DNA of 64,000 bases from an uncultured Lactobacillus sp. GTDB lineage: Bacteria; Bacillota; Bacilli; Lactobacillales; Lactobacillaceae. Of the stretch, positions 1-55,305 are shown piece by piece (within the stretch, counting starts at the first letter, position 1; every line of letters starts with the position of its first letter). The stretch covers positions 1 through 64,000 of the forward strand of contig CALFSK010000069.1 of the NCBI GenBank assembly GCA_937916845.1, given 5' to 3'. The notes under the pieces are model-generated. The model made no database searches and was not told where the DNA came from. It saw only the letters and a program-made list of their open reading frames with translations. Both the position numbers and the translations under genes were made by a program.

Positions 1-204
1 TTCATATCATGATTACGAGGGTAGAGCGAAGCGGCACCCTCAGATAGTTTTTTATCTCCGAATATTTATAGTCGAAACGTGCGATAAAAGACTGCTCCCT
101 CCGCTTAGCTACGAAATACGAACGATTGAAGGTGCACAATCATTCGTATTCCTAGGCTATGCTCGGTAGCAACCCGTCTTTTGTCCCACTCTCGTCTTTT
201 TAGG
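1..204. other. Intergenic stretch with long imperfect hairpin
   Basis: No gene is visible here. On the minus strand it lies just past the end of the ECF operon. Arms at about 115-128 and 137-150 are inverted repeats of 14 bases with one mismatch (AATACGAA core), and weaker arms continue outward, including AAAAGAC/GTCTTTT near 85-91 and 174-181. The base of the hairpin read on the minus strand (GGGACAAAAGAC) resembles the base of the structured repeats at 48744 and 54946. It may be a terminator or a diverged member of that repeat group. Confidence 0.4.
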
Positions 205-2913: not shown

Positions 2914-3062
2914 CAAAAAACGCCTACCACGCAAAACGGTGGTAGACGGCTAAGTCATCATTGATGGTTCCCCAAATAAAAGCATTGCTTCCTGCGCTGG
3001 CATTATCCAGATTCAGGTTCAATGGGTATTATCTCAGCCGTAGTTGGCACCCCAGTTGCTAT
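2914..3062 (-). promoter_or_regulatory. TPP riboswitch with intrinsic terminator
   Basis: Read on the minus strand, 3062-2981 carries the THI-box pattern: GGGGTGCC, then GGCTGAGA, then the run ACCCATTGAACCTGA, then TCTGGATAATGCCAGCG and GCAGGAAGCA. It is followed by a hairpin (stem arms 2923-2930 and 2939-2946) and a T run at 2914-2920, a Rho-independent terminator. The expected behaviour is that TPP binding favours the terminator and shuts off the ECF operon. The hairpin ends about 48 bases before the corrected start of the first gene. Confidence 0.92.
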
Positions 3063-3078
3063 TGTGGATGATAGGATT

Positions 3079-3719: not shown

Positions 3720-4550
3720 TTGGAAACATATACGTTGCGGGACGGTTTGACCGTTCCTAAGGTTGGGTTTGGAACTTATAAATTAAACGGGGCCCACGGT
3801 GTTCAGGTGATTGATTCAGCGATTGACCGGGGCTACCGCTTGTTGGACACGGCGTTTAATTATGAAAATGAAGGAGCCGTTGGTGAGGCGGTCCGGCGTT
3901 CTTCCGTGCCACGTTCGGAATTGATTATCTCTTCAAAGTTACCGGGCCGGCACCACGCCTATGATCAAGCAATTGAAACGATTCAGGAATCACTGTATCG
4001 TGCTGGATTAGACTATTACGACCTTTACTTGATTCACTGGCCAAACCCGAAAGAAAATCACTACGTTGAAGCTTGGCAGGCGTTAATCGACGCGCAAAAG
4101 TTGGGGTTGGTTCGGTCAATTGGGGTCTCAAACTTTTTGCCAGAACACTTAGACCGCTTGGAAAAAGAAACGGGCGTGATGCCCGTCATCAACCAAGTAG
4201 AACTCCACCCGTACTTTAATCAGCAGGCTCAACGCGACTATGATGCTGCTCACGGTATTTTGACGCAGGACTGGAGTCCATTGGGGCGTGCCAGTGAAAT
4301 GTTACAAAATCCAGTTTTGAAAGAAATCGCAGCTCGTTACCAGAAGAACGTCGGTCAATTGATCTTGCGGTGGGAAGTCCAATTAGGAACGTTACCAATT
4401 CCGAAGTCGTCTACGCCTAAGCGGCAATTAGGTAATCGCGATATCTTCGACTTTGAAATCAATGCTGAAGACATGGCGACCATCAATGGCCTGAGTTCTG
4501 CGGACGGTCGGTTGAAGAATCAGAATCCGGCCTTTTACCAAGAGTTTTAA
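3720..4550 (+). CDS. Aldo/keto reductase
   Basis: A cytosolic NAD(P)H-dependent carbonyl reductase of 276 residues with a TIM-barrel fold. The catalytic tetrad is complete: Asp43 and Tyr48 in LLDTAFNYENE, Lys73 in SSKLPG and His106 in LIHWP. The C-terminal IPKSS motif of the cofactor-phosphate site is also present. It starts with TTG, placed 11 bases after AGGAG at 3704-3708. Substrate cannot be read from sequence; relatives act on 2,5-diketogluconate, methylglyoxal or other aldehydes. It is followed by a strong bidirectional terminator. Confidence 0.9.
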   Translation: METYTLRDGLTVPKVGFGTYKLNGAHGVQVIDSAIDRGYRLLDTAFNYENEGAVGEAVRRSSVPRSELIISSKLPGRHHAYDQAIETIQESLYRAGLDYYDLYLIHWPNPKENHYVEAWQALIDAQKLGLVRSIGVSNFLPEHLDRLEKETGVMPVINQVELHPYFNQQAQRDYDAAHGILTQDWSPLGRASEMLQNPVLKEIAARYQKNVGQLILRWEVQLGTLPIPKSSTPKRQLGNRDIFDFEINAEDMATINGLSSADGRLKNQNPAFYQEF

Positions 4551-4580
4551 GTGTAAGCCCTAATAAATAGGTATAAAAGA

Positions 4581-4654
4581 TAACCCAGCGTTAAAGGCCA
4601 CAGATCGTACCAACCAATCCGGTAGTACGATCTGTGGTCTTTAACGCTGGGTTA
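4581..4654. terminator. Bidirectional terminator with a 30-bp stem
   Basis: Arms 4581-4610 and 4625-4654 pair along all 30 positions with only one G-U pair, around a 14-base loop. It lies between the convergent aldo/keto reductase and greA genes and can end transcription from both sides. The stem is much longer than a normal terminator. Confidence 0.85.
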
Positions 4655-6240: not shown

Positions 6241-6954
6241 ATGAAAGTTATCGTAGTAAAGGATCAAGCTGCCGGCGGCAAAGAAGGATACAAAGTATTT
6301 AAGGATGCTCTGGACAATGGGGCAAAAGTATTTGGGTTGGCAACTGGTTCAACTCCTATCACGACTTACAAGGAAATCATCAAGAGTGATTTAGATTTCA
6401 GTAACTGCACGTCTGTTAACTTGGACGAATATGTTGGTATTGCACCAGACAACGAACAAAGCTACAAGTACTTCATGCAAACAAACTTATTTAACGACAA
6501 GCCATTCAAGGAATCATTCTTACCAAATGGTTTAGCTTCAGACCCAGAAGCAGAAGTAAAACGTTATGATAAAGTTATTGACGAACACCCAATTGACTTA
6601 CAAATTTTAGGCCTTGGCCGTAACGGTCACATTGGCTTTAACGAACCAGGTACTTCGCGCGACGTTACAACCCACGTGGTTGATTTAACGGAATCAACGA
6701 TCGAAGCAAACTCACGCTTCTTCGCTAGCGAAAACGATGTTCCTAAGCAAGCCTTCTCAATGGGCTTAGCTTCCATCATGAAGAGCAAGCACTTATTGCT
6801 TGAAGCCTTTGGTGAAAACAAGGCCGATGCCGTTAAAGGCATGATCGAAGGTCCTGACACCGTTGACTTACCAGCAAGTATCTTGCAAAACCATCCGAAC
6901 GTAACCGTTGTGATTGATGAAGCGGCTGCAAGTAAGTTAAGCAAAAAATACTAA
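6241..6954 (+). CDS. nagB: Glucosamine-6-phosphate deaminase
   Basis: This enzyme converts glucosamine 6-phosphate to fructose 6-phosphate plus ammonia, feeding amino sugars into glycolysis. The protein of 237 residues has the family motifs: the phosphate loop ATGSTP at about 35-40, catalytic Asp62 in NLDEYVG, and His130 and Glu135 in [12 protein letters not shown] start at the ATG at 6241 behind AGAGGGAG; an upstream TTG at 6205 lies inside the operator and is not credible. It has its own cre and NagR-like boxes and a strong terminator. Short relics of its 3' end recur between the downstream secreted-protein genes. Confidence 0.96.
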
Positions 6955-10552: not shown

Positions 10553-11968
10553 CTACAGGTTCTGGCCCTTTTCCCAAGTCGTTGCGGAAAGGAGTAGCCC
10601 TTGCTTAACCAGTTGGTCGAACAAGGTGTGGGTCCGTTTGGAAATCTCGCCGGCCGTTGCAGCGTTGGCCTTAGTCAAAAAGTCGGTCGCGTCGCCAGTA
10701 ATTGTGGCGTCGGCTTTAGCCACTTGTTCGCGGGCGAAGGATTGGCAACCGTCTTTGTAAGCATTGACGGTTTCAGCAAATTCGTGCCAGTGGGGTTCGA
10801 TGAGCACTGACAAGGTCTTGGACAACCAGTAAACGTTATTAACGTCGACGTTAGCCGTTGTGTTTTGATAATCAAGCGGCGTGTCCTTGATATTAGTAAA
10901 GAATGGAACGTATGGTGCGTAGGCAAAGAAGCCCATGGCAACCCATTGAATCGCAGCTTGTTCCGCTGGGACGTCGTTGCGAATTTGTAAAATCGATGAA
11001 CACTGGTTACGGTCCATTGCGATTGAACGGTAACGTTTTTGTTCCCGTTGATCACCAGAAGCAAAGGTGCCAAATGGATCGTACGGTGTCCCGTTGTAAT
11101 GGGATGACAAGAAGAACTGAACGTCTTCAATCGCAAGCTTTTTGCTAGGCTGCCGGAACATTGGCATGTCTTGGTCAGTTGGTTGTTGTTCAATTTCAGG
11201 ATTGAACAACTTTTGACCGTACCATGTCCGGGGCGTGTTGTAGTAGGCGTCGGCTTCACTCTGCGTACCGAAAATTTCACGGAAGTTAAAGTGACCGGGA
11301 TTAGGGTTTAAATGGTTCTTTTCAACGAATTCAGCTAAATCGCTGGCCCCAAGAAAGTTGTCGGTATCACTCAGATCCATTTCTTGAACAACGGTTTGGT
11401 TAGGAACGATGGCGTAAGTGTCATCGGGAACGCGTACGGCGCCCCACCGGTGACCACCGGCCGTTTCGAGGATCCAGATATCATTTTGGTCGTTGAAGGC
11501 GATGCTGTTGCTTTCGCCCGTACCGTATTTTTCAAGGAGGGCCCCTAAACGCTGAACACCTTCCTTAGCACTTTTAATGTAGGGTAATACTAAAGTGACC
11601 ATGGCTTCTTCATCCACACCATCGTGGACTAATGGGTCGTAGCCGAGTACGCGGACGTTCGTTGCCGTAGTTTCAGTGGCACTCATGCCGACGTTTAGTT
11701 CGTTGATTCCGGCTTCTTCATATTGACCGTCACTTTGGTCTGCTTGTGGCGTTGCCGTGTAACGATAGGCGTGGTCCGGTAGTGGCACCGTCACACCGGT
11801 CGTTACGGAATGGTAGGTCGCGTTGGACTGGTCCTTAGCGGCGTGAACCACGAATTTAATGGGGTTGATCGGGCCGTAACCATCTTCGTTACGAGCAACA
11901 ATCGTTGAACCGTCCATGCTGGCGGCTTTCCCGACTAATATTTCAGTACAATCAGAATCTTTCTTCAT
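10553..11968 (-). CDS. pepD: C69-family dipeptidase (PepD)
   Basis: An Ntn-hydrolase dipeptidase used by lactobacilli to split dipeptides in the cytoplasm. The product of 471 residues has a six-residue propeptide and then Cys7 in CTEILVGKAAS, which by family analogy becomes the N-terminal nucleophile after self-processing. The following SMDGSTIVARNED and the FNDQNDIWILETAGG segments are also typical. There is no signal peptide, fitting a cytoplasmic enzyme. The ATG at 11968 follows AGGGGGA. It is transcribed away from the mannitol operon, with about 370 bases of control region between them. Confidence 0.9.
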   Translation of the reverse strand: MKKDSDCTEILVGKAASMDGSTIVARNEDGYGPINPIKFVVHAAKDQSNATYHSVTTGVTVPLPDHAYRYTATPQADQSDGQYEEAGINELNVGMSATETTATNVRVLGYDPLVHDGVDEEAMVTLVLPYIKSAKEGVQRLGALLEKYGTGESNSIAFNDQNDIWILETAGGHRWGAVRVPDDTYAIVPNQTVVQEMDLSDTDNFLGASDLAEFVEKNHLNPNPGHFNFREIFGTQSEADAYYNTPRTWYGQKLFNPEIEQQPTDQDMPMFRQPSKKLAIEDVQFFLSSHYNGTPYDPFGTFASGDQREQKRYRSIAMDRNQCSSILQIRNDVPAEQAAIQWVAMGFFAYAPYVPFFTNIKDTPLDYQNTTANVDVNNVYWLSKTLSVLIEPHWHEFAETVNAYKDGCQSFAREQVAKADATITGDATDFLTKANAATAGEISKRTHTLFDQLVKQGLLLSATTWEKGQNL

Positions 11969-14219: not shown

Positions 14220-16295
14220 ATGGTTAAGTTCACGCAGCGTCAAGACGAATTATTACAATTGTTGTTAGCAAATCCCAGTGGCCTTTCAATGGGTCAGATT
14301 GAAACCGGTCTCAACAGTAGCCGGCGGACGATTTACCGCGAGTTTAGTAACTTAGAGCTGGTCTTACAAAACGCCGGCTTGAAGGTAGTTAACGTGACGC
14401 ACCGGTTTCAACTAACCGGGGCAGAAGCGGCCTTAGCTGAGTTTAAAAGCCAGCTAACGGCGGGACACGAAATTGCACCAGCATTTGATTCGCAGACGCG
14501 TCAAAATGCGTTAGCTTGCCGGATTCTCATGTCAGACCGGTCAATGAAACTAAAAGAATTGGCGATTGATTTTGATGTCAGCGTGGCGACCATTTCTAAC
14601 GATTTGACCACGCTAGGCACACCGTTTGACGATTATGATTTATCAATTGAGCGGTTAAAGTCCCGCGGCATTCAAGTTGCGGGCACGGAAGGTAATATTC
14701 GGAATCTGTTTGCCACGATCTTGAATAATGAAATTAATGATTACGAGTTCTTTAAGACAATCGGCAAACTCAATCAGGGCTTGGCTGTATCGGCCAGCGA
14801 CGAGCAATCGTACTTCTTGAACTTATTAGATGCCGGCACGTTATTGATTTGTTACCATGCCGTTCGGGATTTAAAAAAGAAGTACTTTGCGTCGGTACCG
14901 GATGGTCAGTTGCAACAACTGATCATTACCTTGACGACCGGGGTCATGCGGTTGAAGAGTCATAAGCGCGTCACGTATTTACGGGGCATCAATCGCGATG
15001 ACTTTCTCAAATATCAGCGTATTGCGCTTGCCATCATGACTCAGTTGCCAGCGGACGTTAAAACCGTTATCACGGGTGCGGAAATTGATTTTCTAGCCCA
15101 GCAGATTAAGGGATTAACGTTCCGCATTGACCAAGACGCTTCGTTATCGAACTACGATTTGCAACTCACTTATCAGGTGAAGAAGTTAATCGACGCGGTT
15201 GCCCATCACTTTAATTGGTCGTTTGGGACTGATGATCGGCTACTGAATAACCTGACGGCGCACATGCAAATTGCGTTGCAACGTAACGGTGTTAATGGTC
15301 CAGTGCCACCAAGTCCAGAACTGCAAGAAGTTCGCGAACAGTACCCGAAGCTATATTCGGCGGTCGTGCGGAGTTTTGCCAGCACGTTCCCGGATCAAGA
15401 TTTTAAAGCGGATGAATTAACGTACTTGTTGATTCACTTCGCCAGTACGTATGAACAACAATTAAGTCACCAAGCCTTAAAGGTGTTGGTACTCTGTCCG
15501 AATGGGATGACGACCGCCCGGATCTTAAAGACCCGTTTGGCACGCTTAGTCCCAGAGATTACCACCATTGAAGTCGCTCGAATTGGGAACCTTGGTCAAA
15601 TCAACTTACAAGGATTTGACATGATTCTCTCGACGACGACGCTGCCCGGGTTCAAGTTGAACTACCGGGTGGTCAGCCCGTTGTTACTTGAAAATGAAGT
15701 CAGTTCGCTACGTGAATACATCCACCAGTATTATCCAAGTACGCTGGCGGTTGAAGCACCAGCCGTTGATGAAACGACGACGAATCTGGACTTTGATACC
15801 GTGTATCAACGAATGACAATCGCTAAACAAATTCTGAATCGGTTTACGATCACCCCCATTAGAAACGATCGTGAAACCATTGCGGAGACCTTAGTTAAGA
15901 TCACCAAGCATATCGATTCGAATTTGATACACGACCCCCTAGAAGTTGCGGGGCGGTTGTTACATCGTTTGAGTAGAGCACCGGTTGGTATCCCTAACAC
16001 CAATCTGGCGCTAGTGCACACGTTAAGTCAACAGGTGACCGCTCCGTATTGTGCCATCTTTGAACTGGATCAGCCAATCACCTTTAAGAGTATGGATCAA
16101 AGCGAGATTCGGCTTCAACGAATTGTGTTGATGCTCGGTCCCGAAAACATCAGCGACTTTGAAAATCGTTTGATGGGTAAGTTGAGTGCGTTAGTCATTG
16201 AGAGTTTGGATAACACCCAGACTTTTATGACCGGTGATCGCCAACAACTATATCAGTTAATTAGCAAAGCCTTTTTGAACGAACTAACGAAATAG
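14220..16295 (+). CDS. mtlR: Mannitol operon activator, PRD-containing
   Basis: A transcription activator whose activity is set by PTS phosphorylation. The order over 691 residues is: HTH (about 5-50), second HTH (about 100-135), PRD1 (about 190-290), PRD2 (about 300-400, with YLLIHFAS), an EIIB-Gat-like domain with Cys426 in VLCPNGMTTA, and a C-terminal EIIA-like domain with His600 in LALVHTLS. All the phosphorylation-site domains known from Bacillus-type MtlR are present. It sits between mtlA and mtlF, with GAGGTGG before the ATG, so it activates its own operon, probably through the palindrome at 12240. Confidence 0.95.
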   Translation: MVKFTQRQDELLQLLLANPSGLSMGQIETGLNSSRRTIYREFSNLELVLQNAGLKVVNVTHRFQLTGAEAALAEFKSQLTAGHEIAPAFDSQTRQNALACRILMSDRSMKLKELAIDFDVSVATISNDLTTLGTPFDDYDLSIERLKSRGIQVAGTEGNIRNLFATILNNEINDYEFFKTIGKLNQGLAVSASDEQSYFLNLLDAGTLLICYHAVRDLKKKYFASVPDGQLQQLIITLTTGVMRLKSHKRVTYLRGINRDDFLKYQRIALAIMTQLPADVKTVITGAEIDFLAQQIKGLTFRIDQDASLSNYDLQLTYQVKKLIDAVAHHFNWSFGTDDRLLNNLTAHMQIALQRNGVNGPVPPSPELQEVREQYPKLYSAVVRSFASTFPDQDFKADELTYLLIHFASTYEQQLSHQALKVLVLCPNGMTTARILKTRLARLVPEITTIEVARIGNLGQINLQGFDMILSTTTLPGFKLNYRVVSPLLLENEVSSLREYIHQYYPSTLAVEAPAVDETTTNLDFDTVYQRMTIAKQILNRFTITPIRNDRETIAETLVKITKHIDSNLIHDPLEVAGRLLHRLSRAPVGIPNTNLALVHTLSQQVTAPYCAIFELDQPITFKSMDQSEIRLQRIVLMLGPENISDFENRLMGKLSALVIESLDNTQTFMTGDRQQLYQLISKAFLNELTK

Positions 16296-48046: not shown

Positions 48047-48739
48047 GTGAGCACAGCAAATTCTCAACCAGTCGCAAATGATGATCAATTTTTACCAGCC
48101 CCGCCGGAGTTATTGCAGGCGGTCGACCAGCTGAAGGCCTACTCGTTGCGTTACGAGGTGGCCATGAAGTTGGTCTTGGACAAGCTGGATTACATTAGCC
48201 GGGAATATGAGTTACGCTACGGCTATGCCTTGATCGATAGCAAGCAGTCACGAATTAAGTCACCAGAAAGTATCGTGGGTAAGTTAAAACGTAAGCACCT
48301 GCCGCTGACCTTTGACGCGGTGTTTAGTAATTTACACGATATTGCTGGGATTCGACTGATTGTTCGATTTTTGAGCGATGTCAAAACGGTGGAAGATCTA
48401 TTAGCGACGCAAGCTGATATTAAAGTTCTAAGAGTGAAGGATTACATCCATAATCCAAAACCCAATGGTTATCAAAGCTTACATTTGATTCTTGGGGTTC
48501 CGGTCTACACGGTTGATGGTCCGAGTATCATCGAAGTTGAGTTACAGATTCGAACGATTGCGATGAATTTTTGGGCGTCGTTAGAGCATGAACTGAACTA
48601 TAAAAAGAACGTGCCCCATCAAGCTGCGTTACGGCAGTCGTTGACTAAAAAGGCACAATTAATTACCGAATTAGACCAGGAAATGGATGACATCAAGCAA
48701 CGGATGTACGATCCCGAACGACCACCGAAGAAATTTTAA
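48047..48739 (+). CDS. Small alarmone synthetase ((p)ppGpp synthetase)
   Basis: A stand-alone RelA/SpoT synthetase domain of 230 residues that makes (p)ppGpp from ATP and GDP or GTP, without the hydrolase or regulatory domains of Rel. Motifs include KSPESIVGKLKRK (about 72-84), HDIAGIRLIVRF (about 103-114), KDYIHNPKPNGYQSLHL and EVELQIRT; the Glu-rich EVELQIRT strand and YQSLH contact substrates. It starts with GTG at 48047 after TTGGAGCG. Whether it is RelP or RelQ cannot be decided here. Structured repeat C copy 1 begins 4 bases after its stop. Confidence 0.9.
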   Translation: MSTANSQPVANDDQFLPAPPELLQAVDQLKAYSLRYEVAMKLVLDKLDYISREYELRYGYALIDSKQSRIKSPESIVGKLKRKHLPLTFDAVFSNLHDIAGIRLIVRFLSDVKTVEDLLATQADIKVLRVKDYIHNPKPNGYQSLHLILGVPVYTVDGPSIIEVELQIRTIAMNFWASLEHELNYKKNVPHQAALRQSLTKKAQLITELDQEMDDIKQRMYDPERPPKKF

Positions 48740-48743
48740 AAGA

Positions 48744-48919
48744 GTGTGACAAAAGGCGGTCAGTTTGTGAGCATTAACGTGAAAGAAGCGATTATTCCTG
48801 GGCTTGGAATGGTCGATTCTTTCGGGTTAAGCGGAACAAATTGCCTTTTGTCACACGTTTTGGCCATAATAATAAGGGAAGCCAATCAGAAATAGCATGC
48901 TATTTCTGATTGGCTTTTT
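48744..48919. repeat. Structured repeat C, copy 1
   Basis: A 176-base element of two parts. The long hairpin is closed by GTGTGACAAAAGGC (48744-48757) and GCCTTTTGTCACAC (48843-48856), continues with CAGTTTGT against ACAAATTG, and ends in an apical stem GAAAGAA (48781-48787) with TTCTTTC (48817-48823) and ATTCC/GGAAT around TGGGCTT. It is followed by GGCCATAATAATA and a perfect 38-base palindrome (48879-48916) with a T run, a terminator. The copy at 54946 has the same layout and compensatory changes. Confidence 0.78.
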
Positions 48920-49173
48920 GAGTGTTGTCTCAAACTCATTTTTGGCGTCAAACTTGATGGGTATCAAGTCTAAAATTAAAGGGATTCGATAAACTGAATA
49001 AACCGTGAACTTTTTTAGGCCAAATGAAGCTGAATTATTTCCGATTACGGCGTGAACATGCTATTTTTAATAAGCAGGATCATGATTATTGATATTAAAT
49101 AATTATGATATTTATACAGAAGCCATAATGGTTGGGCCTAACTAAGTCCCAGTAATATTGTGAGGTGATTCAG
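48920..49173. other. AT-rich gap without recognised features
   Basis: Between repeat C copy 1 and the end of the TetR gene I see no reading frame, hairpin or binding site that I can support. Confidence 0.4.
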
Positions 49174-49752
49174 TTACTCGGTTGGTTCGGAAAGATCTTT
49201 AACCGGTTTGCCCCGGTACCACCAGTCGTTGATGAAACTAGCGAGTTCTTCTGGTGATTCGTTTAAACCGGTCTTGAGCCAGTAGCGCACGACGCCGACA
49301 ATCCCGTTGAGATAGTATTCGAACATGTACTCTTTTTCACGACTACCGATTCCCGGAACTTTACTAGGAATCTGTGCGAGAATTTCGCGTTTGGTCGTGG
49401 CAATGAAGCTCATTAAGAAATCTTGGTCAGTCGTCAGTATAAAGGAAGTAACGGCGTGTCGTTTCTTAACCACTTCGAAGATCCCCGTCAAAATGGCTTG
49501 TAATGAGTCCGGAATCGAATGTTCATCGATCACGGCTAGGAGTTCCTTAGTTGCATCTTGTTCCATCCGATTCATGCAGTCTTTGACATCTTCATAGTGC
49601 GCATAAAACGTTCCCCGGTTGATGTCGGCTGCTTTGCAAACGGCGGTCACGGTAATCTCATCGATGCTTTGTTCTTGTAGCAATTGGATGAGACTATCTT
49701 GAATTAAACGCTTCGTCATCTGGGAGCGCCGATTATTTTTTGTGCCTACCAC
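49174..49752 (-). CDS. TetR family regulator, divergent from MMPL gene
   Basis: A repressor of 192 residues. The N-terminal HTH reads TKRLIQDSLIQLLQEQSID, then VTAVCKAADINRGTFYAHY, and the rest is a helical ligand domain with YYLNGIVGVVRYWLKTG near the end, the TetR_C type of DhaS-like regulators. I use the GTG at 49752, which is 8 bases after GGAG; the GTG at 49761 overlaps that box. It is divergent from the 1449-residue MMPL gene, with palindromes between them, and almost certainly controls it. Confidence 0.88.
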   Translation of the reverse strand: MVGTKNNRRSQMTKRLIQDSLIQLLQEQSIDEITVTAVCKAADINRGTFYAHYEDVKDCMNRMEQDATKELLAVIDEHSIPDSLQAILTGIFEVVKKRHAVTSFILTTDQDFLMSFIATTKREILAQIPSKVPGIGSREKEYMFEYYLNGIVGVVRYWLKTGLNESPEELASFINDWWYRGKPVKDLSEPTE

Positions 49753-49802
49753 TTTATTCACTCCATTATTTGAACAGTATTGTTTAGTTTGTTTATTTTA
49801 TG

Positions 49803-49847
49803 ACAATTTTATGAAAATTGTTGATTGAAATTTCATTGGTTTTCAAT
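49803..49847. promoter_or_regulatory. Operator palindromes between TetR and MMPL genes
   Basis: ACAATTTT (49803-49810) and AAAATTGT (49814-49821) form a perfect palindrome with a three-base centre, and ATTGAAA (49824-49830) with TTTCAAT (49841-49847) a second one. Both lie in the AT-rich divergent promoter region, where the TetR protein would act on both genes. Confidence 0.55.
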
Positions 49848-49930
49848 TAACATATTGTTATTATTTAAACACATTGTTGATTAAATGTCACGATGTCGTT
49901 TTAGAATCTGATTTAGGGAAGGGATACAGA

Positions 49931-52900
49931 TTGAAAGGGAGCCGTAGACGCTTTACAATTCAAGCGATTATTTGGCTGGTAGTGATGGTAGCGGCCGTCA
50001 TCTTCCTGCCAAATATGAGCAGCCTGGTTCGTGAAAAGGGCCAGACTAAGCTGCCAAGCAGCGCCAAGAGTCAAGTTGCACAAGTCATCCAAAATCACTG
50101 GGGGCGTGGTCAAAATAACACGCGTCAAGTGGTCGTGGTCTTTAACAACGGTGACTCACCGTTAACTGACACGCAGAAGCAGGAGATCGATGGGACGATC
50201 CAACGCTTCAAAGTTCAAAAGTCGAAGTACCATGTGAAGTCAATGACTGCCGCAAGCGATAACGCGGCTGCCAAGAAACAATTGATTTCTAAAGATAAAT
50301 CGACCGAACTTTTACAGTTAATGGTTGGTAAGAATCAGACCGTTTCAAACATGACAAAAAACATCACTGAAGGTGCAAAGACGAGTGGTGTAAAGACTTA
50401 CGTTACCGGGAGTGACATCTTAAACGATGACTTCACGCAAGAAACGGAAGCCGGTATTCAAAAGACCGAAATTATTACGGTTATTTTCATCTTTATCGTG
50501 CTGACGTTAGTCTTTAGATCACCAATTACACCATTAGTATCACTGTTGTCCGTTGGGGTTTCATTTATCATTTCACTGAGTGTTGTGATGAACTTAGTTG
50601 ATAAAGTTAACTTTCCATTGTCGAACTTCACCCAGGTCTTTATGGTCGTGGTGTTGTTCGGGATTGGGACCGACTACAACATCTTACTGTTTGATCAATT
50701 CAAAGAAGAGCTCAGTCATGGCGATAGTCCGGTCGCCGCGACTGGGAGAGCACTAAAGATTGCCGGACGAACGATCTTGTACAGTGGGTCGTCACTATTG
50801 ATCGGGTTCTCAGCCTTAGGGTTGGCGAACTTCTCGATTTACCGGTCAGCGGTCGGGGTTGCGATTGCCGTTGCCATTCTATTGCTCGTCTTACTGACGT
50901 TAAACCCATTCTTCATGGCTTTGCTAGGACCACGGTTGTTCTGGCCAACTAAGAAGTTTGCTGGTGGCAGTACGAGTAAAATGTGGCACGGGATTGCGTT
51001 TAATTCCGTCCGTTACCCAATCATTGCGTTGATCGTGGTTTTAGGCGTTTCATTGCCTTTTGTCCTAACGTACAATAACGAGTTGAACTATGATACGTTA
51101 GCCGAATTAAACGATACGATTCCGGCTAAACAAGGGTTCAAAGTGGTTCAGAGTCACTTTTCAAAGGGGACGGCTGAACCGTCAACGTTATACATTAAGA
51201 CTGATCACGCTTTGAATAATGAAAAAGATTTAAAAGCGATTGATAGTTTAACGAAACAGTTACAAAAGGTTAAGGGCGTCAAGACCGTCGCTTCCGTCAC
51301 CCAACCAGGTGGCTCTGCCATTAGTGATTTATACGTTGGCAAGCAACTCGGGACTGTGACTAGTGGGATGAAGACCGCGGGTAGCGGGCTGACCAAGATT
51401 AGTGACGGTTTAGACACGGCTAACGGTAAGCTGAAAAAGGCTAACGTCGCGGGCAGTGTTAAAGACGTTAAGAAGTTGGCGGATGGTTCTAAGCAAGTAT
51501 CCGACGGCTTAAGCGAACTGAACGGTAAAACCGGGACGCTAGCTAGTGGGACGAGCCAGTTGGCCAGTGGTGCGAATACCCTGAAGACTGGGTTGGTCAC
51601 TTACACGAACGGTGTTTATACCGTCAACAGTGGGTTAAACCAGTTGAACAGCAAGACTGGAACACTTGCTAGCGGCGTTAATCAGTTAGCTAGTGGTTCA
51701 GGCCAAGTGACAAGTGGGTTAAACCAATTAAATGGTAAGACGGGTGCTTTATCCAGTGCGACCGGTCAGTTGGCTAGTGGTTCTAGTCAAGTTGCCAGTG
51801 GTGCCAACTCACTTAAGTCGAGCTTGGTGACTTATACGAATGGTGTTTATACCGTTAACAACGGCTTAGACCAATTGAATAGTCAGACTGGGACTTTGAA
51901 GTCTGGAATTACGCAGTTATTTGACGGTACCCAATCCTTAACTAATGGGTTGGATCAGTTAGATAATAGCAAGAAGTCCATTTCTGATGGGACGACCACT
52001 TTAAGCACCAGTGTTTCAAAGCTACAAGGTGGTTCTAGTGAAGTTTCTCAAGGGTTAAATCAATTAGCAGAACAGATTAAAGCTGGTAACAGCTCAGTGA
52101 GTGCTTCAGACCTTGAAAAGTTAGTCTCAGGGTTACAGGCAATCAATGGGAACATGCAGACGTTGATTGATAACTCTAGTGATTTGCCAGGAAGTATAAC
52201 GGCCTTAAATCAGGCGGCAACTTCGACTAAGCAGTCACAGTCAGCGATCAGTTCTGACATGACGGCCATTAAGGGCGCGTTAGAGAGTGCTGCTACGGCG
52301 GATGCGGCTGGTAGTCAGTCGTCATCGACAACTAGCGTGAACGGAACTACCGTGGCTGATGCAGCGGTAGCAGCCGCGGGTTCATCAGCAACTGCTGAAC
52401 AGAAGTCAGCCATTAGCTCGGCCGTAACGTCAGCGGTTAACGCCCAAAATAGTGCGAATGCGAAGACGAGTTCAAGTACGGCAACGACGAAGGCCAATTC
52501 TTCAGCGGCTTCCGGTCTCAGCGCTTTATCCGATTTACAAAAACAGTTAACAGCAATGAACGCTGCCACTGATCAATTACAAACGTTGAGTACTAAGTTG
52601 GGTAAACTTTCCTCACTTGGAACGTTAGCCAACGCAAGTATCGATGCAAATAACAAGTCGATCAATGCGGTCCAAGGGTTGCAAAAATCTTTGAGCAGTA
52701 TGCAAGAATTAGAAACTGCGGTTGGCAAGTTGTCTGACGGTTCTAACCAAGTGACTTCCGGTTTAGGCGAATTACAAACTGGAACTAACACGTTGGCAGC
52801 AAAGTTGAACCAATACACGACGGGTGTCTCAAGTGCCGCCAGCGGTGCTAACAAGGTCAACAATGGTGTCAGTGGGTTGAACTCACAAGTGCCAACGTTG

Positions 52901-54280
52901 ACTAGTGCCATCAGCGCACTCAGTCAAGGAACGAACAAGTTAAATGCTAATTCAGGTGCGCTTAATGCTGGAACGACGCAGTTAGCTAGTGGTGCGACCC
53001 AGGTTGCGACTGGTAACGGTCAGTTGAATGCGCAAGTGCCAACGTTAGCAAACGGTGTTAGTCGTTTAGCTAGTGGGTCTTCACAAGTTTCGACTGGTTT
53101 AGGCACGTTACAAGGTCAAATTCCAACGTTAACTGGTGCCATCAGTGCGTTGAGTTCTGGGACGAACCAATTAGTTTCGAATTCAGCAGCCTTAAACGGC
53201 GGTGCTTCAAAACTGGCACAGGGTGCAACCGAATTGAATTCGAACGTGCCTGCACTAGTTAGTGGTGTCAATAAGCTGAACACCGGTGCCAAGCAGGTTG
53301 CCGATGGGAACGCAACGATGTACACCACGATGCAAGGTCTCGTTGGTCAAATGCAAGAATTACAAACTGGACTTAAGACGGCCAGTGATGGGACGAAGAA
53401 GGTCAATAAGGGTGTCGTTTCAGCTAACAGTTACTTAACTGGGTTGAAAGATTCTGACGCTTCGAAGACCTACTACGTACCAAAGAGCGTCTTGAAGGGT
53501 AAGACTTACGCGTCAGCATTGAAGGCGTACATGTCTGAAGACAACCATGCCACTAAGTTGACGATTGTCTTGGATACCAACCCAAGTTCGAAGTCTGCAA
53601 TGAATAAGATCTCGTCGATTCAAACGCAAGCGCAAAATAGTTTGAAGGGGACCGCGTTAGATGGCGCAACGATTGCCATCGGTGGTCAAACTTCTGAAAC
53701 TAATGATACGCAAGCCATTGCGTCGAGTGACTTCATTCGGACCGCGGCGATTATGTTGATTGGGATTCTGATTGCCTTAATGGTCATCACGCGTTCCGTC
53801 TTACAACCGTTCTACATCTTAGGGACGTTATTGTTAGCTTACATTATGTCCTTGAGTATCACGCGGATCTTGAGTAACTGGTTCTTAGGTCAAAGCATGT
53901 TAACTTGGAACACACCGTTCTTTGGTTTCATCATGTTGATTGCCCTCGGGGTCGATTACAGTATCTTCCTGATGATGAAGTACCGTGAGTTTGATAATTC
54001 GGCAGCAACGCCAAGTACCCGAATTGTCCGTGCTTCCGCTGTTATTGGGGCCGTGGTCTTATCCGCTGCCTTGATCTTGAGTGGGACGTTCGCGGCATTG
54101 ATGCCATCCGGAGTCTTGACCTTGATTCAAGTGGCGATGGTTGTGATTATCGGGTTAATTATCCTGGTATTCTTCATTCCTGCTATCATTCCAAGTTTGA
54201 TTCGTTTAACTTATCCGTTAACGGATCGCATGGAAAATGAAGGCACGGCGGATGAACCAACGAAGCGTCATCAAAAGTAA
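49931..54280 (+). CDS. MMPL-type membrane protein with long repetitive middle region
   Basis: A very large RND-superfamily membrane protein of 1449 residues. One helix near residues 10-28 precedes an outside loop. A membrane block of about five helices (about 180-340) and a matching block near the C terminus (about 1265-1425) are the two MMPL halves, with IGTDYNILLFDQF and LGVDYSIFLMMKY as matching proton-relay-type motifs. Between them about 690 outside residues are built from heptad-like units (LASG, LNQL, SGLNQL) as in YhgE/Pip proteins, including a 77-residue near-duplicate with VTYTNGVYTVN. The TTG at 49931 has GGGAAGGGA 6 bases upstream. It is likely an exporter of lipids or wall-active compounds, controlled by the divergent TetR gene. 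Confidence 0.88.
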   Translation: MKGSRRRFTIQAIIWLVVMVAAVIFLPNMSSLVREKGQTKLPSSAKSQVAQVIQNHWGRGQNNTRQVVVVFNNGDSPLTDTQKQEIDGTIQRFKVQKSKYHVKSMTAASDNAAAKKQLISKDKSTELLQLMVGKNQTVSNMTKNITEGAKTSGVKTYVTGSDILNDDFTQETEAGIQKTEIITVIFIFIVLTLVFRSPITPLVSLLSVGVSFIISLSVVMNLVDKVNFPLSNFTQVFMVVVLFGIGTDYNILLFDQFKEELSHGDSPVAATGRALKIAGRTILYSGSSLLIGFSALGLANFSIYRSAVGVAIAVAILLLVLLTLNPFFMALLGPRLFWPTKKFAGGSTSKMWHGIAFNSVRYPIIALIVVLGVSLPFVLTYNNELNYDTLAELNDTIPAKQGFKVVQSHFSKGTAEPSTLYIKTDHALNNEKDLKAIDSLTKQLQKVKGVKTVASVTQPGGSAISDLYVGKQLGTVTSGMKTAGSGLTKISDGLDTANGKLKKANVAGSVKDVKKLADGSKQVSDGLSELNGKTGTLASGTSQLASGANTLKTGLVTYTNGVYTVNSGLNQLNSKTGTLASGVNQLASGSGQVTSGLNQLNGKTGALSSATGQLASGSSQVASGANSLKSSLVTYTNGVYTVNNGLDQLNSQTGTLKSGITQLFDGTQSLTNGLDQLDNSKKSISDGTTTLSTSVSKLQGGSSEVSQGLNQLAEQIKAGNSSVSASDLEKLVSGLQAINGNMQTLIDNSSDLPGSITALNQAATSTKQSQSAISSDMTAIKGALESAATADAAGSQSSSTTSVNGTTVADAAVAAAGSSATAEQKSAISSAVTSAVNAQNSANAKTSSSTATTKANSSAASGLSALSDLQKQLTAMNAATDQLQTLSTKLGKLSSLGTLANASIDANNKSINAVQGLQKSLSSMQELETAVGKLSDGSNQVTSGLGELQTGTNTLAAKLNQYTTGVSSAASGANKVNNGVSGLNSQVPTLTSAISALSQGTNKLNANSGALNAGTTQLASGATQVATGNGQLNAQVPTLANGVSRLASGSSQVSTGLGTLQGQIPTLTGAISALSSGTNQLVSNSAALNGGASKLAQGATELNSNVPALVSGVNKLNTGAKQVADGNATMYTTMQGLVGQMQELQTGLKTASDGTKKVNKGVVSANSYLTGLKDSDASKTYYVPKSVLKGKTYASALKAYMSEDNHATKLTIVLDTNPSSKSAMNKISSIQTQAQNSLKGTALDGATIAIGGQTSETNDTQAIASSDFIRTAAIMLIGILIALMVITRSVLQPFYILGTLLLAYIMSLSITRILSNWFLGQSMLTWNTPFFGFIMLIALGVDYSIFLMMKYREFDNSAATPSTRIVRASAVIGAVVLSAALILSGTFAALMPSGVLTLIQVAMVVIIGLIILVFFIPAIIPSLIRLTYPLTDRMENEGTADEPTKRHQK

Positions 54281-54312
54281 AATTATTTAGTGGTCGGTGT
54301 GACTAACTAAAC

Positions 54313-54360
54313 CAAAGCAGCCTTTCGGAAAAACATTCTGGAAGGTTGTTTTTGGTTTAT
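54313..54360 (+). terminator. Terminator after the MMPL gene
   Basis: AACCAAAGCAGCCTTTCGGAA pairs imperfectly with TTCTGGAAGGTTG followed by TTTTTGGTT, giving a hairpin with a T-rich 3' arm. Confidence 0.65.
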
Positions 54361-54381
54361 GATGATTAGGAGGACGAAATA

Positions 54382-54942
54382 ATGAAACGATGTACCTGGG
54401 CAGAATCTTCAGATTTAATGCGGGCTTACCATGATCAGGAGTGGGGGCACCCGCAGCATGATCCACAAAAGCTTTTTGAATTATTATGTTTAGAGACTTA
54501 CCAAGCGGGACTGAGCTGGCAAACGGTGCTTAATAAACGGGCGGCGTTTGAGGCGGATTTTCACCACTACGATATTGAACGAGTTGCTGCAATGACGACG
54601 GCTGATCTGGCGCGGTTAATGACTGACGAACGGATTATCCGGAACCGGTTGAAATTAACGGCAACTATTAATAACGCCCGGGTGATTCGTGATTGGCCAG
54701 CTGGGTCGTCGTTTGCGACGTGGTTATGGGACTTCGTCGATAATCAACCGATTCGGCAGCCTTGGCAACGCATGGACCAGATGCCCGCAACCAATGATCT
54801 CGCTAAACGGGTCTCAAAGGAAATGAAAAAGCGGGGCTTTAAGTTTGTGGGGCCCACAACCATCTATTCGTATTTACAGGCGGCTGGCTTGATCAATGAC
54901 CACTTGGTGGATTGTGATTGGGCACCGGAAAACCAGAAGTAA
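54382..54942 (+). CDS. tag: DNA-3-methyladenine glycosylase I
   Basis: A base-excision repair enzyme that removes 3-methyladenine from alkylated DNA. The 186-residue protein has the zinc ligands Cys4, His17, His174 and Cys178, matching E. coli Tag, and the motifs YHDQEWG near 16-22 and ETYQAGLSWQTVL near 40-52. AGGAGG precedes the ATG. It is a single gene; structured repeat C copy 2 starts within 4 bases of its stop. Confidence 0.96.
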   Translation: MKRCTWAESSDLMRAYHDQEWGHPQHDPQKLFELLCLETYQAGLSWQTVLNKRAAFEADFHHYDIERVAAMTTADLARLMTDERIIRNRLKLTATINNARVIRDWPAGSSFATWLWDFVDNQPIRQPWQRMDQMPATNDLAKRVSKEMKKRGFKFVGPTTIYSYLQAAGLINDHLVDCDWAPENQK

Positions 54943-54945
54943 GCC

Positions 54946-55121
54946 TGTGACAAAAGGCGGGTAGTTTGTGAGCATTAACGTGGCATCAGTGATTATTCCT
55001 GGGCTTGGAATAGTCGCTGATGCCGGGTTAAGCGGAGCAAATTGCCTTTTGGCACACGTTTCGGCCATAATAATATAGAGAAGCCGTTCAGAAATGGTTA
55101 ATATTTCTGAATGGCTTTTTT
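54946..55121. repeat. Structured repeat C, copy 2
   Basis: Same two-part layout as copy 1. The closing stem is TGTGACAAAAGGC (54946-54958) with GCCTTTTGGCACA (55044-55056), one mismatch. The apical stem is GGCATCAG (54982-54989) with CTGATGCC (55017-55024), in place of GAAAGAA/TTCTTTC in copy 1, so both sides have changed together. The loop TGGGCTT and its flanks GATTATTCC and GGAAT are identical. The terminator hairpin is AAGCCGTTCAGAAAT (55081-55095) with ATTTCTGAATGGCTT (55103-55117) and a T run. Confidence 0.78.
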
Positions 55122-55305
55122 AGTATGTCGTATTTTTGCCTAACATCTCATCCTTTAGAGTATTAGCAATCAATAATCAAAAAAAGTCGCGACTAAGCCG
55201 ATAAAATTGCGGAAGGCCTTCACATTTTGACCCCATTTTCCGTGTAAGTTTAAATCTGTTAAAGCAATTTGCAAGTTCAATACTTACCTGAAGGAGGGTT
55301 TAAGC

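What the first reader, a model, noticed from the sequence alone, without database searches (positions are those of the whole stretch)
48744..55121. Structured repeat C: long hairpin plus terminator after two unrelated genes
Copies at 48744-48919 and 54946-55121 start 3-4 bases after the stop codons of an alarmone synthetase gene and tag. Each is a roughly 113-base hairpin (closing stem with ACAAAAGGC/GCCTTTTG, apical loop TGGGCTT) joined by GGCCATAATAATA to a terminator hairpin. The apical stem is GAAAGAA/TTCTTTC in one and GGCATCAG/CTGATGCC in the other, and the terminator stems also covary (CAATCAG/CTGATTG against CGTTCAG/CTGAATG), while loops and junctions are identical. Selection on a fold in a 3' untranslated region is the simplest reading, for example mRNA stability or an sRNA released from mRNA ends.
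Basis: partly seen in the sequence, partly recalled or inferred. Interest (0 to 1): 0.78.

Follow-up and report, generated by a model that had tools for sequence, protein, structure and literature searches.

The report
Mobile hairpin element replacing gene terminators
The two repeats are copies of a small, protein-less DNA element that has spread in lactic acid bacteria by taking the place of transcription stop signals behind genes, keeping its folded shape while its sequence changes; what moves it is unknown.

Summary
Both elements lie where described, and a covariance model finds about 55 copies in this Lactiplantibacillus genome, 10 to 112 in each of 21 Lactiplantibacillus genomes, and matches in 97 of 395 Lactobacillales genomes. 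Stems change freely but stay paired while ends, bulge and internal loop stay fixed: 399 cells with double-sided changes against 125 +/- 11 in shuffles. 38 of 51 full own-genome copies start within 30 bases after a same-strand stop codon (5.9% expected); none lies in a divergent gap (23% expected). Comparison with L. xiangfangensis shows why: at four sites read side by side, one species has the element and the other a plain terminator hairpin; at two of them the base of that hairpin still flanks the element and its top is gone. So this is a terminator-replacing, terminator-carrying palindromic mobile element. It works like the EFAR/Efa-1 repeats of Enterococcus faecalis (EFAR recalled, not read); common ancestry was not testable. 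The mover is unknown; a REP/RAYT-type transposase was not found in this genome.

The parts
48741..48937 (+). Copy 1, whole unit: 5' end AGAG, core hairpin, junction, terminator, distal inverted repeat GAGTGTTGTCTCAAACTC
   Evidence: 188.5 bits to R1; 133.9 bits to R2
48744..48856 (+). Copy 1, core hairpin
48862..48874 (+). Copy 1, constant junction GGCCATAATAATA
48879..48919 (+). Copy 1, terminator-like hairpin and T run
   Evidence: not called on the + strand by the simple scan
54942..55128 (+). Copy 2, whole unit; its first base is the last base of the tag stop codon and the 5' end reads AGCC in place of AGAG; distal repeat not clearly preserved
   Evidence: 182.8 bits to R1; not among the 23 copies with both ends definable
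54946..55057 (+). Copy 2, core hairpin
55063..55075 (+). Copy 2, constant junction GGCCATAATAATA
55081..55121 (+). Copy 2, terminator-like hairpin and T run
   Evidence: not called by the simple scan
34..195 (-). Copy of a divergent subfamily with a different apical stem but the same end, bulge and internal-loop motifs
   Evidence: (72.8 bits)
48047..48739 (+).
54382..54942 (+).

Best explanation
The repeat is a non-coding palindromic mobile element, about 185-200 bp in this genome, that lands in intrinsic terminators and brings its own terminator. Anatomy: an AGAGnG end, a 110-130 nt core hairpin with a fixed 5' bulge and a fixed internal loop, a CnCGTTTCG end, and in this genome a terminator hairpin plus a distal inverted repeat. 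Shown: many dispersed copies; presence/absence differences between sister species; the element in place of a terminator hairpin at four sites read side by side, with the hairpin base retained on both sides at two of them and the T run at the other two; no target duplication noticed at those sites; a fold kept through compensatory change. Inferred: since the element supplies a terminator, insertion does little harm, so it accumulates right behind stop codons in the direction of the gene; the conserved fold with its unpaired motifs is what the moving machinery recognises, on single-stranded or extruded DNA or on RNA. Unknown: the enzyme or repair reaction that moves it, and whether the RNA does anything for the cell.
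For: Copy number: 55-57 in the own genome, 10-112 in 21 of 21 Lactiplantibacillus genomes. Empty and occupied sites against L. xiangfangensis: C7:28877 and C22:36013 (hairpin base AATGGCTA/TAGCCATT and GACTA/TAGTC flank the element, top gone), C22:33571 and the L053/L167 site (hairpin gone, T run kept); C69 at 112.9 kb, a whole convergent gap exchanged; C69 at 109.2 kb, opposite orientation behind different genes in the two species. Behind the alarmone synthetase gene 12 of 12 congeners read by eye have a plain terminator at that place, and the model finds no element there in the 13 congeners other than L. xiangfangensis. 5 of 12 xiangfangensis copies lie at loci where an own copy was fetched. 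Placement: 45 of 51 with the upstream gene on the same strand, 38 of 51 within 30 nt of its stop, 0 of 51 divergent. Fold: 38 of 46 pairs change on both sides, 87% of cells paired against 36-45% in slid controls.
Against: No copy has been seen to move. Polarity (gain or loss) is supported by outgroups only at the alarmone synthetase site, where both sister species are occupied. At C69:81881 the core stands in front of a terminator, not in place of it. Behind tag, xiangfangensis has 535 bp of other DNA, so that site tells nothing of the target. Flank complementarity over the 23 of 51 copies with both ends definable was not significant by my first measure (0.126) and significant by a second one chosen afterwards (0.0016). 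In 54 copies from other species the same-strand bias is weaker, with 5 in divergent gaps. No mobilising protein was found.
Confidence: 0.85

Rival explanations
1. Cis-acting 3'-UTR element or 3'-end sRNA: the fold is selected for mRNA stability, RNase III processing or release of a regulatory RNA, and copies are kept because they are useful.
For: Compensatory change, placement behind genes in sense, more G-U than A-C cells on the sense strand, unpaired core columns less variable than paired ones (0.72 against 1.14 bits).
Against: Copies differ between sister species, occur behind unrelated genes, have internal deletions that remove most of the core, and copy number varies tenfold in a genus. 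No transcript data.
Confidence: 0.25
2. Classical MITE moved in trans by a transposase that recognises its terminal inverted repeats.
For: Imperfect inverted repeats at the ends in this genome; dispersed copies without coding capacity.
Against: No target duplication noticed and target DNA lost at the sites read. Of 10 own-genome hits to the end sequence, six lie at copies from the list, three of the four fetched regions hold elements, and the fourth, by a contig end, gave no model match; no IS was recognised, but I did not annotate every hit.
Confidence: 0.2
3. REP-like repeat moved by a RAYT (Y1) transposase.
For: Palindromic, intergenic, many copies, no coding capacity.
Against: PF01797 has no match in the own genome and in 7 further congeners that hold 11 to 101 copies; it occurs in 13 of 21.
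Confidence: 0.03
4. Covariation is mostly mutational: arms are copied from each other by template switching in the hairpin, so stems match without selection.
For: Near-perfect palindromes L094:6785-6918 and 15045-15178 beside siblings that keep the loop; own copies C15:122422 and C20:55574 have lost the mismatch in the apical stem.
Against: Bulge and asymmetric internal loop survive in most of 38 copies whose stems share little sequence; correction would erase them.
Confidence: 0.3

Closest known systems
EFAR repeats of Enterococcus faecalis (Venditti et al. 2007, recalled only, not in the library); Efa-1 (PMC2267715, passages and section 11 read)
   Same: Efa-1: 163 nt, 65 members, intergenic, pair of adjacent stem-loops. 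EFAR as recalled: about 170 bp, L-shaped fold of two stem-loops, inserted into stem-loops of which most is lost and part of the stem is kept at the ends. The element here behaves in the same way.
   Different: Sequence kinship not testable here. Here the core fold is shown by covariation across many genera, and head-to-tail arrays with a period near 125 nt occur in relatives.
SPRITE, BOX and RUP of Streptococcus pneumoniae (PMC3049150, passages read)
   Same: Small interspersed intergenic repeats with strong folds; SPRITE resembles a terminator and is enriched near gene 3' ends.
   Different: SPRITE is an 18 bp duplex and a U-rich tract, without the core hairpin; the paper reports rare occurrence outside pneumococcus and S. 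mitis. Replacement of terminators was not among the passages I saw.
REP/REPIN with RAYT transposase (recalled; PMC8049555 seen in a search listing and abstract start only)
   Same: Intergenic palindromes in many copies.
   Different: No PF01797 match in this genome; the unit is several times longer.
attC sites of integrons (recalled)
   Same: Structure conserved more than sequence, unpaired bases at fixed places, often right behind stop codons.
   Different: The ends do not fit the attC core-site motifs as I recall them, copies are scattered, and a terminator follows. An integron integrase was not searched for.

Membership tests
EFAR / Efa-1 | about 163-170 bp with two adjacent stem-loops | tested here: met
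   core hairpin plus terminator hairpin; R1 174 positions; Efa-1 figures
EFAR / Efa-1 | inserted into a stem-loop, most of it lost, stem remnants at the ends (recalled) | tested here: met
   stem remnants at 2 of 4 sites, hairpin lost at all 4; over 23 copies mixed statistics
EFAR / Efa-1 | sequence homology to E. faecalis elements | not testable with these tools
MITE | terminal inverted repeats | tested here: inconclusive
   imperfect in own copies; the 3' partner was definable in 23 of 51 copies
MITE | target-site duplication | tested here: not met
   none noticed, by eye, at the four site pairs
MITE | cognate IS with the same ends | tested here: inconclusive
   no IS recognised, not all hits annotated
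REP/RAYT | RAYT (PF01797) gene in the genome | tested here: not met
   0 matches in G000; 8 of 21 congeners without it
Rfam families | match at gathering score | tested here: not met
   window: only TPP riboswitch elsewhere; 6 loci of relatives: none
intrinsic terminator | stem followed by a T run | tested here: inconclusive
   present by sequence and fold; not called by the simple scan on the + strand; termination itself not testable
3'-UTR sRNA | a stable transcript | not testable with these tools
   no RNA data at hand

The most novel reading that the evidence does not exclude
An order-wide family of protein-less elements that spreads by structure alone: the folded core is recognised, or copied by template switching between hairpins, and exchanged for terminator hairpins without a dedicated transposase, so its sequence can drift while its fold cannot.
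Probability: 0.25. Interest if true: 0.82.

Novelty: new variant of a known kind. Interest (0 to 1): 0.62.

Why it matters
Terminators are usually treated as fixed parts of genes. Here they are landing sites that differ between sister species at several places compared, so gene 3' ends in lactic acid bacteria can turn over quickly. The family gives empty-site pairs and a covariance model with which the open question of how EFAR-like small palindromic repeats move can be tested directly. It also warns that a conserved 3'-UTR fold can come from a mobile element and not from a regulatory function.

Tried and rejected
Rfam: no family at gathering score; an E-value search of 261 bases gave four microRNA-type hairpin matches, all below threshold. 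Phage origin: no blastn match in phages, no exact match to one 25-base pattern in viral contigs. Plasmids: three Pediococcus damnosus plasmids, 73% over 52% of the query; three divergent queries found none. REP/RAYT. IS with the same ends: no support. The alignment mixed strands and was replaced. Literature: seven completed searches listed no paper on this repeat in lactobacilli; PMC2267715 lists a Lactobacillus johnsonii family, Lac-1, 231 nt, typed G where the Efa-1 row has I, which I did not pursue. Retained target stems as a general rule: one measure not significant, a later one significant, so claimed only for the sites shown. Gene contexts rest on mechanical ORF calls, some plainly imperfect (for example C69:81881, C20:23204). 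Rows dropped before counts: of 54 sense-strand hits put into, 38 went into alignment A6 (near-duplicates and one large deletion, L091, left out); one search used the 51 copies above 110 bits of the 63 hits examined; one search kept 23 of those 51.

Full report
WHAT IS IN THE WINDOW. Each begins three or four bases after a stop codon, forms one hairpin of 112-113 nt, then a constant junction, then a terminator-like hairpin. Folding energies lie far beyond shuffles (z -11.5 and -11.2). The window is Lactiplantibacillus: the alarmone synthetase protein is 98% identical to that of L. xiangfangensis, and DNA around it is 94-95% identical. A copy of a divergent subfamily lies at 34-188 on the minus strand.

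A GENOME-WIDE FAMILY. BLAST of the own genome found 42 places, two of them antisense self-matches. 51 matches exceed 110 bits; the rest include short derivatives, the divergent subfamily and antisense matches. At E <= 1e-10 the count is 55; with the broader model R2 it is 57 at E <= 1e-6. The junction motif alone, with up to two mismatches, occurs 70 times against 5 for the reversed pattern. Copies are not identical: some have lost most of the core, and terminators differ in stem and loop.

FOLD. Copies from Lactiplantibacillus, Levilactobacillus, Secundilactobacillus and a Pediococcus plasmid share an architecture more than a sequence: AGAGnG; helix 1; a 5' bulge of GGTTA type; helix 2; an internal loop TGA against GGAR; a long apical helix; CnCGTTTCG. 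On a MAFFT alignment of 38 copies chosen from 54 hits, with the structure taken from the first row's fold, 38 of 46 pairs change on both sides, with 399 such cells against 125 +/- 11 in shuffles, and 87% of cells pair against 36-45% when the partner is slid. Related rows count more than once, so these numbers overstate independence. Unpaired core columns vary less than paired ones, 0.72 against 1.14 bits. G-U cells exceed A-C cells on the sense strand, 177 to 43 in A6 and 148 to 24 in 30 own copies; counted as departures from the commonest pair, 101 to 43 and 31 to 10; one near-invariant G-U pair makes up 30 of the 177. This favours folding of the sense strand, as RNA or single-stranded DNA, over a symmetric cruciform, but does not prove it.

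A CAUTION. In L094 two copies are near-perfect palindromes (6785-6918 and 15045-15178) where two others keep the loop (2788-2920 and 16141-16273). Arm-to-arm correction therefore seems to happen and may contribute to covariation. That bulge and loop survive in most of the 38 copies argues that it is not the whole story.

PLACEMENT. Of 51 full own copies, 45 have the upstream neighbour on the same strand, 6 have both neighbours on the opposite strand and none lies between divergent genes. 38 start within 30 nt after a same-strand stop or overlap it, against 5.9% for random placement in 93 gaps of 142 kb of own sequence, where 23% of random points fall in divergent gaps. In 54 copies from other species the bias is weaker: 22 with sense upstream and opposite downstream gene, 9 with both sense, 16 with both opposite, 5 divergent, 2 with one neighbour unknown. 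Gene calls were mechanical.

TURNOVER AND TARGETS. Behind the alarmone synthetase gene, 12 of 12 other congeners (L067-L078, read by eye) have an ordinary terminator, and in L066 no element follows either. The own genome and L. xiangfangensis both have the element there, but the two copies are 85.4% identical over 185 aligned positions with 12 gap positions, while 600 bases on each side are 95% identical: they diverge faster than their surroundings, or one was exchanged. Behind tag, xiangfangensis has 535 bp of other DNA. Of 12 xiangfangensis copies with loci, 5 match loci fetched for own copies; the others may still match own copies that were not fetched. At four sites read side by side one species has a terminator hairpin and the other the element in its stead (compared blocks 87-97% identical). 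At C7:28877 and C22:36013 the base of the hairpin is left on both sides and the top is gone. At C22:33571 and the L053/L167 site the T run remains. At C69, 112.9 kb, the whole gap between two convergent stops differs; at C69, 109.2 kb, the two species carry the element in opposite orientation behind different genes, best explained by independent insertions; at C69:102140 xiangfangensis has a shortened copy; at C69:81881 the core stands in front of a terminator. Complementarity of the flanks over the 23 of 51 copies with both ends definable was not significant by one measure (0.126) and significant by a second (0.0016).

BREADTH. With R2, built from the 38 copies, 21 of 21 Lactiplantibacillus genomes have 10 to 112 matches, and 97 of 395 Lactobacillales genomes in 34 of 80 genera have at least one at E <= 1e-4 (8 candidates scored per genome, stricter filters). 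Ten genomes of other families, picked because they had matches, have 1 to 84 at E <= 1e-6, including head-to-tail arrays with a period near 125 nt.

WHAT MOVES IT. Unknown. PF01797 (Y1 transposase) has no match in the own genome and in 7 further congeners with 11 to 101 copies. No IS with the same ends was recognised, and no target duplication was noticed.

KNOWN KIN. The way it works matches what I recall of EFAR repeats in E. faecalis. The open paper on Efa-1 gives 163 nt, 65 members and a pair of adjacent stem-loops. Kinship was not testable. SPRITE shares the terminator-like nature and enrichment near gene 3' ends. Rfam 15 gave no matching family in the window or in six loci of relatives. 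Seven literature searches listed no description in lactobacilli; most subscription journals are not in that library.

VERDICT.

Noticed in passing
window 2970-3064, minus strand: TPP riboswitch, 59.7 bits, the only Rfam match at gathering score in the window.
   Followed up: no
window 34-195, minus strand; L041:1559-1728 minus; L044:1413-1583 plus: Divergent subfamily: other apical stem, same ends and loop motifs; in L041 and L044 it is followed by a terminator whose stem is the AAAGAGTTTGG/CCCAGACTCTTT motif.
   Followed up: partly
L207, L209, L208: Head-to-tail arrays of three to five core units with a period near 125 nt in genomes of other families.
   Followed up: partly
L094:6785-6918 and 15045-15178 (Secundilactobacillus paracollinoides): Copies turned into near-perfect palindromes, which suggests arm-to-arm copying during replication.
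   Followed up: partly
L065:16881-17415: 535 bp of unrelated DNA behind tag in L. xiangfangensis, with a short reading frame, where the window has the element.
   Followed up: no
L103, L105, L107, L094 about 10760-10953, minus strand: In Levilactobacillus and Secundilactobacillus a related element lies downstream of the alarmone synthetase gene on the opposite strand.
   Followed up: no
window 48952-48970: Palindrome AACTTGATGGGTATCAAGT downstream of copy 1; similar ones follow the terminator in several of the congeners printed, next to a divergently read regulator-like gene; operator-like.
   Followed up: no
window 49874-54280: Reading frame of 1468 aa between the two copies with a long internally repeated stretch (SGLNQLNGKTGTL-like units).
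   Followed up: no
L206:1507-1862 and 4227-4582: In one genome of another genus two facing pairs of elements flank trpE/trpG-like genes about 2.4 kb apart (gene names by eye).
   Followed up: no
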